Notes under the pieces: generated by a model
What the model saw: the letters and a program-made list of their open reading frames with translations, nothing else
Database searches by the model: none
What the model was told of the DNA's origin: nothing
Made by a program: the position numbers and the translations under genes
Shown here: one piece after another, positions 4,301 to 62,900 of the stretch
Layout: each line of letters starts with the position of its first letter
Numbering within the stretch: the first letter of the stretch is position 1
Assembly (NCBI RefSeq): GCF_019059575.1
Contig: NW_024882189.1
Coordinates: 81,001-145,000, forward strand
Direction of reading: 5' to 3'
DNA length: 64,000 nucleotides
From: Amphibalanus amphitrite
Taxonomy: Eukaryota; Arthropoda; Thecostraca; Balanomorpha; Balanidae

Positions 4301-7300
4301 GATTAGGGGCCCATTTGAGGAGCATTTGAGGCTGCCTTCGGCCGCCTCAAATGGGCCCCTCAATTTGAATGGGGAGGGCGCGGGCCCGTGTGCCTCTCCA
4401 CCCCTTATGTGCGCCCTTGCCTACCTATTGATATTTGCTATGGCTCTGGTCACAGACTGACTTGGACATACGCGTACCAATTGAGAAGGGAGGAAAACAG
4501 AAAGACTGACTTGTGGCAGGGGTGTCCGACCACGGTAAGGGTGGACCCAAAGGAAAATTGACTGGCCGGGAGGACAGGCCCACTGACCGGGAGGACAGGC
4601 CGACTGACCGGGAGGACAGGCCCACTGACCGGGAGGACAGACCCACTGACCGGGAGGACAGGTCCGGGAGGACAGGTCCGGGAGGACAGGCGCACTGACC
4701 GGGAGGACAGGCCGACTGACCGGGAGGACAGACCCACTGACCGGGAGGACAGGCCCACTGACCGGGAGGACAGGTCCGGGAGGACAGGCCCACTGACCGG
4801 GAGGACAGGTCCGGGAGGACAGGCCCACTGACCGGGAGGACAGGCCCACTGACTGGGAGGACAGGTCCGGGAGGACAGGCGCACTGACCGGGAGGACAGG
4901 CCCACTGACCGGGAGGACAGGCCCACTGACCGGGAGGACAGGTCCGGGAGGACAGGCCCACTGACCGGGAGGACAGGTCCGGGAGGACAGGCCCACTGAC
5001 CGGGAGGACAGGCGCACTGACCGGGAGGACAGGCCCACTGACCGGGAGGACAGGCCCACTGACCGGGAGGACAGGCCCACTGACCGGGAGGACAGGTCCG
5101 TGAGGACAGGTCCACTGACCGTGAGGACAGGCGCACTGACCGGGAGGACAGGCCCACTGACCGGGAGGACAGGCCCACTGACCGGGAGGACAGGCCCACT
5201 GACCGGGAGGACAGGCCCACTGACCGGGAGGACAGGCGCACTGACCGGGAGGACAGGTCCACTGACCGGGAGGACAGGCCCACTGACCGGGAGGACAGGC
5301 CGACTGACCGTGAGGACAGGCCGACTGACCGGGAGGACAGGCCGACTGACCGGGAGGACAGGCGCACTGACCGGGAGGACAGGTCCGGGAGGACAGACCC
5401 ACTGACCGGGAGGACAGGCGCACTGACCGGGAGGACAGGCCGACTGACCGGGAGGACAGGCCGACTGACCGGGAGGACAGGCCCACTGACGGGGAGGACA
5501 GACCCACTGACCGGGAGGACAGGCGCACTGACCGGGAGGACAGGCCGACTGACCGGGAGGACAGGCCCACTGACGGGGAGGACAGGCGCACTGACCGGGA
5601 GGACAGGCCCACTGACCGGGAGGACAGGCCCACTGACCGGGAGGACAGGCCCACTGACCGGGAGGACAGGCCCACTGACCGGGAGGACAGGCCGACTGAC
5701 CGGGAGGACAGGCCGACTGACCGGGAGGACAGGCCCACTGACCGGGAGGACAGGCCGACTGACCGGGAGGACAGGCCCACTGACCGGGAGGACAGGCCCA
5801 CTGACCGGGAGGACAGGCCCACTGACCGCGAGGACAGGCCCACTGACCGGGAGGACAGGTCCGGGAGGACAGACCCACTGACCGGGAGGACAGGCGCACT
5901 GACCGGGAGGACAGGCCGACTGACCGGGAGGACAGGCCCACTGACCGGGAGGACAGGCCCACTGACCGGGAGGACAGGTCCACTGACCGGGAGGACAGGC
6001 CCACTGACCGGGCCCAGCAAACATGCCCACATGGTTCCCATATGGGGCCCACATGGGCCCCCCACCTCTTCCATATGGGCCCCACATGGGAATGGCAGTG
6101 GGTGACACGTGGGACCCATATGGGCCAGCCCACGTAGGCCCCATATGGGACCCACGCGGCGCCCACATGGGACCCATATGGGTAGCCCATCTGTAGCCCA
6201 TGTCCCACGTCGGCCCATCTGGCCCATGTTCACCCCATATGGGACCCACATGGGATGCCCATCTCCAGCCCACATGCGTTTGGCCCATCTGGCCCATTTT
6301 TATCCCATATGGGGCCCATATGGGTAGCCCATCTGTAGCCCATGTCCCACGTGGGCCCATCTGGCCCATGTTCACCCCATATGGGACCCATGTGGGCATG
6401 TTTGCTGGGGGAGGACAGGCCCACTGACCGGGAGGACAGGCCCACTGACCGGGAGGACAGGCCGACTGACCGGGAGGACAGGCCCACTGACCGGGAGGAC
6501 AGGCCCACTGACCGGGAGGACAGGCCCACTGACCGGGAGGACAGGCCCACTGACCGGGAGGACAGGCCGACTCCACCAGGCGCCAGACGCTGTTGTGCAC
6601 CGGCCCGAAGGCGGTGTCGAGCCGCGTGAGGAGGCCGTCACCGAGCAGCGTGTACAGAGCGGGACAGAGCCGGTCCAGCACCAGGTAGCCGATGGCAGGG
6701 CTGCGCCGACTGTCCCCGAGCAGCTGGCCGCCGACTGTGGCACACAACACACGGCCAGTGAACCAACGCGGCACCTGTGTACCTAACACAATGGCACCGA
6801 TCTGAAACATCCAGAACTGCAGGACGTGGTGTTTTACCAGTCTAAGAATGAAATAAAATAAGATAAGCGCCTAACGTGGAAATATTACTTTCAGTAGGTA
6901 TAACTCTTAATCGTAATAGAATGCCTTATTGGTATGGAAGGTGTCAATACCGCAAAGTATGTGAGTGTGTAAGCAGGTATGTCTTACCTGGATCATTTGA
7001 TGACAGGGATATTGCACTTGATTGGAAGTAGGCCACGATCGACGACACACTTTCAGTGATAAGACTCAGGGCCTCTGTAAGATGACATTTATCGGTTAGT
7101 GTACGATATGCGTAGAGTAGATACGTCTACAAACGAATAAGGAAAGAGTAACTAATCGTATGCTTGCACGCTCTAGCCATGTATTTCATCACATTGGGAT
7201 ATAACTTAGCCGTAGTAACTTATATTTCGTGAATAAAGCTGGATAGGCGCTAAAGCTTAGGTAAATATTTCTTACGAGCATAATCTAGCAAAGATGCAAG

Positions 7301-59900: not shown

Positions 59901-62900
59901 TTTTCTACACTCCCGAGCCGGAGCGCGACTACCTGGAGGCGGCCATCCGCACCGTGGTGCAGATCCACATGTGCGAGGAGGTCGAGGGCGACATGCTGCT
60001 CTTCCTCACCGGTCAGGAGGTAAGACAGGAGGTCAGGAGGGGGGACTTATCCCATTGGGTGGAGCGGGATGTAACGAACGGAAAAAACTTGCCCAATGGT
60101 TGATAGTTTGGTAGAGTGACTGACTCACCTTACAAAGCAAGAGATACGTATAGGTGACTTATTCACCGGACAGGACAGGGGGAAAGATTGCCATTCGTGT
60201 CAGGAGGGGGACGGCCTGTTTCTCATCATACGGAGTAATTAGGGTCAAGGGGAAGGGGGTGTCCTTCTAACTCCACAGGATAGCATGAGGGCGCGGGCTG
60301 ACATTCCCCGCGCCCCGCCGGCCGCAGGAGATCGAGGAGGCCTGTAAGCGGCTGAAGCGGGAGATTGACAACGTGGGCCCCGAGATCGGCGAGCTGAAGT
60401 GCATCCCGCTGTACTCGACGCTGCCGCCGGCGCTGCAGCAGCGCATCTTCGAGCCGGCGCCGGCCAACCGGCCCAACGGCGCCGTCGGACGCAAGGTGGG
60501 CGGCAGGGGGAGGCGCTAAAGGGGGGGGGGGGTGCAGTGGGCAGAGTCGGGAGCTACTGTGTTGGCGCGTTTATTAGTGCGACCCTCATGGCGGCTGCTG
60601 GGGTGTACATTTACAAGAGAGGTTATCGGTGGATGACCGAATATCTGCCAGCAAGGGGTCTATTTTATTGTTGGCTGGGTGTCCAGGGGACTGGTTGAGC
60701 TCGCTGTAGTCGTTACCAGGTAGCCGGGGCGCAGTATAACTCCGCACGGTGATGTTTCACGCGCTGCGGTCGCTCACTCGGCCCGCCGCCGTCCGCGCGG
60801 CCTGCCGGAGTTCGCTGTGACCTGTGTGTGACCGTGTTTCCCGGACCGACCGGTGATGTGTGACCGTGTTTCCCCGGCCGGCCGCCAGGTGGTGGTATCG
60901 ACAAACATCGCCGAGACGTCTCTAACCATCGACGGTGTGGTGTTCGTGATCGACCCGGGCTTCTCCAAGCAGAAGGTCTACAACCCGCGCATCCGCGTGG
61001 AGTCGCTGCTCGTCTCGCCCATTAGCAAGGCGTCGGCGCAGCAGCGCGCCGGCCGCGCCGGCCGCACCAAGCCCGGAAAGTGCTTCCGGCTGTACACGGA
61101 GAAGGCGTTCAAGTCTGAGATGCAGGACAACACGTACCCGGAGATCCTGCGCTCCAACCTGGGCACCGTGGTGCTGCAGCTGAAGAAGCTCGGCATCGAC
61201 GACCTGGTGCACTTTGACTTCATGGACCCGCCGGCGCCGGAGACGCTGATGCGCGCGCTGGAGCTGCTCAACTACCTGTCGGCGCTGGACGACTCGGGCA
61301 ACCTGACCGACCTGGGCGCCATCATGGCCGAGTTCCCGCTGGACCCGCAGCTGGCCAAGATGCTGATCGCCTCCACCGAGTACAACTGCAGCAACGAGAT
61401 CCTCAGCATCACGGCCATGCTGTCAGGTGAGCGGCCGCGGCCGACCAGTTCACCGCACTAGTGGCGGCGGCGCCGGCTGGGTCAGCCCAGCGCCGGCGGC
61501 TGGTAGTCATGGCTGCCGTGGTATTTGATCGTGCTTTCTGAAAAAGATACTGGAAGCATGTAATTTTAATGACAAGGTGAGCTCTGTAATCAAAGCAAAT
61601 GCAACGGTAACTTACGTACCTAGCTTGAGTGTGGACACTTGTGAATCATATCCAGCAAAGTTAGCCTGTCGCAGACGGTCCGGGCGGCTGACTGGCCCGT
61701 CCGTCCGTCCATCCGTCTATGTGTGTGTCTGTGTGCGCCGGGCGGTGGGCGGTGCCGCCACCCCCCACCGCCCGGCCTGACTCTGTCGGTGCGCCTCCGT
61801 AGGTCAAACTAACGGGCCGGACGCGGGGGCGCGCTCCTGCCTCCTCCTGAACTCTAGTTCCACAGTGTTTCGTGCGGCCAAACGACGCGCGAAAGGCCGC
61901 CGATGAGTCCAAGATGCGGTTCGCGCACATAGACGGCGACCACCTGACGCTGCTCAACGTGTACCACGCCTTCAAACAGAGTGAGTGTCGCTCCCTGCCG
62001 CTCGCTCTCTCCTCCCGGGACTGGGCTGGACGTGTACCGCGCCTTCAAACAGAGGTACCCTCCCCACCGCTCCTCCCGAGACTGGGCTGGACGTGTACCG
62101 CGCCTTCAAACAGAGGTACCCTCCCCACCGCTCCTCCCGAGACTGGGCTGGACGTGTACCACGCCTTCAAACAGAGGTACCCTCCCCACCGCTCCTCCCG
62201 AGACTGGGCTGGACGTGTACCTCGCCTTCAAACAGAGGTACCCTCCCCACCGCTCCTCCCGAGACTGGGCACCGAGGAACCGGGACGGGGGCTTTGGGGA
62301 TGGGTATTGGCGCATAGACCCTCCCTGAGTTTATCGTGAAGAGTGATGACATACCGCAACCTTTTTTACTCTCCTGTTTAATGCTGTTTTAGTTAAGCAT
62401 CAGATGCTTTTCTTGGTCCGCTATATACTCCCCTAAGGCACTGGATCAGCTGTGGCCAGTAATTGTCTCTGCTGCGATCAGTGCAAATGAGATAACTGAG
62501 AGCCTCACGGATGTGGTTTGCTGCTAACACAGCCGTGGGTTGGGAAGTGACTCAAGCGTGTACTGACCAGTTATCCGTACCATACGTTCCCGTGTACGGC
62601 CCGTGTACGGCCCGGCCTGGTCTGACGGGCGTGGCTGCGCCGGTGACCTGTCCTGCTGCAGACATGGAGGACCCGCACTGGTGCCACGACAACTTCGTCA
62701 ACTACCGGTCGCTCAAGTCGGCCGACAACGTGCGCCAGCAGCTATCACGCATCATGGACCGGTTCAACATGCCGCGCCGCTCCACTGACTTCACGTCGCG
62801 CGACTACTACATCAACATCAGGAAGGCGCTCGTCTCCGGCTTCTTCATGCAGGTGGGCGCCCGGACCAGGACCAGGCTGGGGTCAGCGGGACCGGACCGG

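What the first reader, a model, noticed from the sequence alone, without database searches (positions are those of the whole stretch)
4561..62272. Several minisatellites in this window are built from splice junctions
At four loci in three different genes, tandem or flanking repeats contain part of an exon joined to its own splice site: exon end plus donor (4.6-6.6 kb, 62.0-62.3 kb) or tract plus AG plus exon start (9.9-10.2 kb, 44.8-45.6 kb). Unit lengths differ (21, 58, 61, 19 bp with flanking copies), so these are independent events. This suggests a mechanism that amplifies DNA at exon-intron borders, for example breaks or replication stalls at such sites, or selection for decoy splice sites. 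I know of no described class of junction-seeded minisatellites; that novelty claim is inference.
Basis: partly seen in the sequence, partly recalled or inferred. Interest (0 to 1): 0.86.

Follow-up and report, generated by a model that had tools for sequence, protein, structure and literature searches.

The report
Tandem repeats of exon borders
In this arthropod genome several introns carry tandem repeats made of copies of the neighbouring exon's edge together with its splice site; such repeats were already known from lancelets as "mirages", so the class is not new, but here they look surprisingly common.

Summary
Three of the four arrays (4.6-6.6, 9.9-10.2, 62.0-62.3 kb) have units containing part of an exon plus its splice site. 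At the fourth (44.8-45.6 kb) the 19-bp unit holds no exon sequence; two copies of an acceptor plus exon start flank the array. A further donor array (58.94-59.01 kb) was missed. The genes are RUSC-like, an unidentified gene and DHX15. The second haplotype carries all four, with different copy numbers (A 80 vs 77, B 5 vs 4, D 5 vs 19). A RUSC paralog has the same exon end without an array. The novelty claim fails: "mirages", minisatellites of exon-intron boundaries, are described in amphioxus genes. This genome is an arthropod, by size probably the barnacle Amphibalanus amphitrite; within my searches the host group is new. In 24 kinase-gene loci chosen without regard to repeats, 7 of 14 minisatellites span a junction; random seeding predicts 1.1-2.4. 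Against this, a coverage test shows no clear peak and the strictest subset is weak (2 of 14, P 0.04-0.10). Most likely: ordinary local duplication across an exon border, tolerated because one copy stays the working junction. A junction-aimed process is not excluded.

The parts
6555..6734 (-). RUSC-like RUN-domain exon; donor at its low end (CTCCCG|GTCAGT) is the source of array A
   Evidence: exon model; match to RUSC1 4giw; same exon end in paralog L021
6409..6572 (-). array A, exon-proximal block, 21-bp units of exon end + donor
   Evidence: TRF; sequence
4561..6012 (-). array A, main block, 21-bp (and 14-bp) units of exon end + donor; both blocks together hold 80 exon-end copies, 68 followed by GTCAGT
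   Evidence: TRF; counts
6013..6408 (.). inverted-terminus element inserted inside array A; absent from the other haplotype
9656..9914 (-). RUSC-like exon; acceptor at 9914 is the source of array B
   Evidence: homologous exon in L021
9898..10183 (-). array B, 58-bp units = intron end + AG + about 17 nt of exon start; 5 copies here, 4 in the allele
   Evidence: TRF
44632..44761 (-). exon of unidentified gene whose start is duplicated at locus C (weakly supported as exon)
   Evidence: sequence; part downstream of the duplicated segment reads the same in the allele
44773..45559 (-). 19-bp array of locus C; unit has no exon sequence
   Evidence: TRF
45560..45613 (-). distal diverged copy of acceptor + exon start at locus C
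61866..61980 (+). DHX15 exon ending ...TTCAAACAGA|GTGAGT, source of array D
61954..62270 (+). array D incl. the true junction as first unit; 61-bp units of exon end + intron start (GGTACC where the true copy has GTGAGT); 5 copies here, 19 in the allele
   Evidence: TRF
58937..59009 (+).
   Evidence: TRF; sequence

Best explanation
These are 'mirage'-type minisatellites. A short segment that straddles an exon border was duplicated in tandem by an ordinary local process (slippage, template switching or end-joining; inferred). The duplication survives because the exon-side copy remains intact as the working junction and the extra copies fall into the intron. The array then grows, shrinks and homogenises like any minisatellite (shown: haplotype differences, strong at D). 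Splicing is presumed to use the exon-proximal site and ignore the decoys (inferred; suggested by RT-PCR in amphioxus). Borders are over-represented probably because seeding is favoured in or next to exons while duplications lying wholly inside coding sequence are removed by selection; that last step is inference.
For: Units contain exon edge plus splice site in lengths not tied to the reading frame (21, 58, 61 bp). Both donors and acceptors are affected. Exon content of the units varies widely (about 10-50 nt by eye), with no fixed cut point at the junction. Copy numbers differ between haplotypes: A 80 vs 77, B 5 vs 4, D 5 vs 19. The RUSC paralog has the same exon end and no array, so intron and junction predate array A. 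Decoy sites are mostly intact, for example 67 of 79 at A, 4 of 4 at B, 16 of 17 at L048, 7 of 7 at L054, so they would have to be ignored rather than removed. An array also sits on a stop codon in L037, a coding border that is not a splice site. Amphioxus mirages show the same anatomy and length instability, and their authors infer regular splicing (PMC3087553 passages).
Against: Uniform seeding with survivorship alone does not predict the excess: 7 of 14 arrays in the kinase sample against 1.1-1.7 expected, 1.5-2.4 after weighting by G+C. At D nearly all decoy donors are changed (0 of 4 keep GT here, 1 of 18 in the allele), which could point to selection; at L038 only 3 of 6 keep AG. No RNA data show which sites are used.
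Confidence: 0.68

Rival explanations
1. A mutational process aimed at exon-intron borders (breaks, replication stalls or co-transcriptional structures at splice sites) seeds the arrays.
For: 7 of 14 TRF arrays in 24 kinase-gene loci span a junction; expected 1.06-1.67 with uniform seeding (P 7.5e-6 to 3.1e-4) and 1.49-2.36 with G+C weighting (P 1.4e-4 to 2.6e-3). In L048 both ends of one intron carry junction arrays.
Against: The coverage profile shows no clear peak at junctions over intron background. With only the 39 junctions that bound the anchoring kinase hits, 2 of 14 arrays span one, expected 0.35-0.56, P 0.044-0.10. None of 10 arrays in a further 63.9 kb spans a predicted junction, though only 13 exons were predicted there. 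Donors and acceptors are both hit, and the cut points are not fixed.
Confidence: 0.22
2. Selection keeps the arrays because decoy splice sites buffer or regulate splicing.
For: Most decoys outside D keep GT or AG.
Against: D decoys are nearly all lost in both haplotypes (0 of 4, 1 of 18); L038 keeps AG in 3 of 6; intact decoys are also expected from homogenisation of recent copies.
Confidence: 0.04
3. Chance or wrong exon calls.
For: No transcripts; locus C's exon is not among the exons of score over 20.
Against: DHX15 and the RUSC donor are fixed by solved homologs and the RUSC donor also by the paralog; repeats of 14-24 exon nt are far beyond chance; the kinase cases fall on exons that read as kinase-type coding sequence.
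Confidence: 0.03
4. The arrays are newly born introns made by tandem duplication of an AGGT exon segment.
For: Tandem duplication with splice sites is a published intron-gain model (PMC4974935 passages).
Against: The intron at A exists at the same position in the paralog without repeats.
Confidence: 0.02

Closest known systems
'Mirage' minisatellites of amphioxus (Adh3, globins BflGb6 and BflGb9, PGBD5; TnC, retinol dehydrogenase and presenilin cited)
   [quoted passage not shown])
   Different: Host is an arthropod; units 21-88 bp here; up to 80 exon-end copies; both ends of one intron affected in L048; a frequency estimate from a small sample is given here
Ordinary intronic minisatellites / VNTRs
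   Same: Unit sizes, haplotype length differences
   Different: They need not contain an exon border; 7 of 14 in the kinase sample do
[quoted passage not shown]
   Same: Tandem duplication carrying splice sites
   Different: No new intron is shown here; the intron at A predates the array

Membership tests
Mirage minisatellites | Minisatellite-like tandem repeats | tested here: met
   TRF; A, B, D
Mirage minisatellites | Unit spans an exon-intron boundary | tested here: met
   A, B, D; kinase loci
Mirage minisatellites | Unit spans an exon-intron boundary, locus C | tested here: inconclusive
   Only two flanking copies of the junction; the 19-bp unit has no exon part
Mirage minisatellites | Both 5' and 3' exon boundaries can be involved | tested here: met
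   Donors A, D; acceptor B; likewise in the kinase loci
Mirage minisatellites | Length differs between haplotypes | tested here: met
   A 80/77, B 5/4, D 5/19
Mirage minisatellites | Many units keep the splice dinucleotide | tested here: met
   A 67 of 79, B 4 of 4; exception D 0 of 4
Mirage minisatellites | Regular splicing not disturbed | not testable with these tools
   No RNA data
Mirage minisatellites | Somatic instability (reported for Adh3) | not testable with these tools
   Needs reads from tissues
Intron gain by tandem duplication | Intron is new at this position (locus A) | tested here: not met
   Paralog L021 has the intron at the same residue
Intron gain by tandem duplication | Intron is new at this position (loci B, C, D) | not tested
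   No relative of these introns was compared for intron presence

The most novel reading that the evidence does not exclude
In this (probably barnacle) genome a DNA-amplifying process is directed at exon-intron borders, so that a sizeable share of minisatellites are born on splice junctions and fill introns with dozens of intact decoy splice sites that the spliceosome must ignore; the same process would operate in lancelets.
Probability: 0.22. Interest if true: 0.8.

Novelty: new member of a known kind. Interest (0 to 1): 0.5.

Why it matters
In what I could read, mirages are a curiosity of a few lancelet genes. A second, distant animal in which they look common would make their origin testable: one can ask genome-wide whether tandem duplication is biased to exon borders, and how splicing picks the right site among as many as 68 GTCAGT donors in one array (RUSC array A), a natural test of exon definition.

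Tried and rejected
Coverage test: the fraction of 20-mers with a local near-copy, by distance from 45 curated junctions, was 0.15-0.18 at the junction, 0.08-0.14 in introns and 0.06-0.08 at 25-70 nt inside the exon. I first read this as 'no enrichment'. Coverage counts every unit of an intron array but only one unit at a junction, so I added a seed-count test. The two do not agree fully and both are reported. The first permutation placed whole arrays and gave 5 of 13 against 1.7, P 0.01; it was replaced because it merged the two L048 arrays.

Ascertainment: of the 45 curated junctions, 6 bound exons other than the anchoring kinase hit, and some of these I looked at because of their repeats. 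Without them 4 of 39 junctions have a near-copy at 16/20 or better (my count of the rows; 8 of 45 with them) and 2 of 14 arrays span one. Loci dropped before counting, 6 of 30: L039 and L049 (taken as alleles of L038 and L048 from their near-identical sequence) and L030, L035, L046, L047 (long open frames, no junction curated). One array counted among the 7 (L034) spans a junction predicted by my own exon model and then checked by eye; the other 6 span curated junctions. The window itself (23 merged arrays) was left out of the test because it was chosen for the feature.

My exon predictor was trained on the same kinase loci (recall 42 of 45 in-sample), so its denominators are rough; some predicted junctions lie inside arrays. 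The G+C weights rest on 24 arrays. The idea that decoys are generally purged was rejected. Intron gain at A was rejected. The 41-47 kb gene stays unidentified (no Pfam family for its two stretches; a guess of FAM193 from memory has no support). In paper searches, one search found no paper with all its terms, and (25 of 305 listed; 10 of 32 listed) showed no arthropod junction case by title; of these listings I opened only the amphioxus globin paper and the Daphnia repeat paper PMC3152781, passages only. The first description (Canestro 2002) is not held (one search tried a wrong DOI), so I know it only through PMC3087553.
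Full report
What was checked. The window is contig C692:81001-145000 of an 807.55 Mb, 2644-contig genome in which many hits come in near-identical pairs on two contigs; its allelic contig is C194, minus strand. Mitochondrial ND1 is closest to 8b9z_H (385 bits; next 294; that 8b9z is Drosophila complex I is recalled), and the order cob, tRNA-Ser, reversed nad1 is the arthropod pattern (recalled). 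The size agrees with the 808 Mb listed for Amphibalanus amphitrite GCA019059575.1 in PMC10454600 (table passage). I treat it as probably that barnacle; this is not proven.

Genes. DHX15 lies on the plus strand from about 58.7 kb; its joined exons match DHX15 8ejm over query residues 3-639. A RUSC-like gene lies on the minus strand at about 1.7-10.6 kb: its RUN-domain exons match RUN and SH3 domain-containing protein 1, 4giw, E 1.1e-11, and four of five exon queries match contig C60 (L021), a paralog. The minus-strand gene at 41-47 kb was not identified.

Locus A. The RUN exon ends at 6555 with CTCCCG|GTCAGT. The 21-bp unit is the last 14 nt of the exon plus GTCAGTG. There are 80 exon-end copies here and 77 in the allele; the decoy GT is kept in 67 of 79 and 65 of 76. 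In the paralog the exon ends at the same residue with a GTGAGT donor and no array, so the junction is older than the array. A roughly 396-bp element with inverted ends (6013-6408) sits inside the array in this haplotype only. Outside this locus and its allele the genome search returned 70-82% matches only (best candidates only).

Locus B. The acceptor at 9914 (CCACAG|GAGCAGGGC) is repeated in 58-bp units, 5 copies here and 4 in the allele, each with AG.

Locus C. The 19-bp array has no exon sequence. It lies between two copies of a roughly 50-bp acceptor plus exon-start segment in both haplotypes. This is a junction duplication with an array in between, not an array of junctions, and the exon itself is only weakly supported.

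Locus D. The DHX15 exon ends at 61980 with TTCAAACAGA|GTGAGT. Units carry about 24 nt of it. Here there are 5 copies including the true one and the 4 decoys read GGTACC; in the allele there are 19 copies, 16 of them with CTGAGT, so the strong donor is lost from the repeats in both. A further 27-bp array at 58937-59009 begins on another DHX15 donor.

Independent sample. From the Pkinase hits I fetched 2-3 kb around 30. After dropping two alleles and four loci without a curated junction, 24 loci (63 kb) remained. Arrays on junctions: L031 donor (GCN2-like), L034 acceptor (EGFR-like), L038 acceptor (PKN-like), L048 donor and next acceptor (MRCK-like), L052 acceptor (PAS-kinase-like) and L054 donor (PAK-like) (the gene labels are recalled from sequence resemblance). 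Short cases of three or four copies: L044 donor and L052 donor. L037 has an array on the stop codon.

Statistics. With 122 junctions (45 curated, the rest predicted), 14 TRF arrays of score 80 or more, 7 spanning (6 at curated junctions), uniform seeding expects 1.06 (smallest unit) or 1.67 (best unit): P 7.5e-6 or 3.1e-4. Weighted by unit G+C: 1.49 or 2.36, P 1.4e-4 or 2.6e-3; taking 6 instead of 7, P up to 0.015. With the 45 curated junctions only, 6 of 14 against 0.40-0.65; with the 39 strictly anchored ones, 2 of 14 against 0.35-0.56, P 0.044-0.10. In 63.9 kb of other sequence 0 of 10 arrays span a predicted junction, but only 13 exons were predicted there. By coverage the junction is not clearly above intron background. 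I conclude that border arrays are common here and probably over-represented, but one sample from one gene family does not settle it.

Known class. [quoted passage not shown] PMC3902484 (passage) adds PGBD5 and troponin C. My searches for the kind in arthropods and for mirages in general showed, in the rows listed, no case outside lancelets; most listed papers were not opened, and the library holds open papers only. In Daphnia pulex, repeats with units over 8 bp are reported to be rarer in introns than elsewhere (PMC3152781 passage), so what is seen here need not be general for crustaceans.

Mechanism. Shown: exon edge plus splice site repeated; array younger than the intron at A; haplotype instability; decoys mostly intact except at D; donors and acceptors both affected. 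Inferred: seeding by ordinary local duplication, survival because one copy remains the junction, splicing by the exon-proximal site. Whether seeding is aimed at borders or merely frequent in and near exons is open; the stop-codon array in L037 hints at the latter.

Noticed in passing
window 6013-6408: Element with inverted ends (CCCAGCAAACATG...CATGTTTGCTGGG) inserted inside array A in this haplotype only; interior made of CCCATATGGG-like repeats.
   Followed up: partly
C194 allele, alt 5922-7212 (L012), opposite window 4472: About 1.3 kb insertion with inverted ends (CGAGGGGGTATCGAAAAGTTCTGATCA) beside array A in the other haplotype, like a Tc1/mariner element (recalled).
   Followed up: no
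C194 allele, alt 46147-92449 (within L016-L022), opposite window 29754-31436: About 46 kb present in one haplotype where the other has 1.7 kb; the same 20/40-bp AGGTCACGA-type arrays recur about every 3.3-3.5 kb over part of it, suggesting a large tandem array.
   Followed up: no
L037 1954-2181 (oriented): 45-bp x 5 array that starts on the last codons and the stop codon of a kinase-like gene: the same phenomenon at a coding end that is not a splice junction.
   Followed up: partly
L048 1622-3000 (oriented): Both the donor side and the acceptor side of one intron in an MRCK-like gene carry their own junction arrays (29-bp and 85-bp units).
   Followed up: yes
window 62861-62975; allele alt 121187-121427: 31-bp array starting about 9 nt after another DHX15 donor without containing it; 3.4 copies here, 7.3 in the allele.
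   Followed up: no
window 22877-23649; allele alt 31821-31980: 33-bp array with 23.3 copies here and 4.8 in the allele.
   Followed up: no
allele alt 10452-10612, opposite window about 8114-8172: 33-bp minisatellite (a multiple of three) inside the large RUSC-like exon, 4.9 copies in the allele; not reported by TRF in the window haplotype.
   Followed up: no
window 25446-25585 and 27722-27796; 32317-33060 and 35930-36332: Closely similar minisatellite units (28 bp; 34 bp) occur at two separate places each within a few kb.
   Followed up: no
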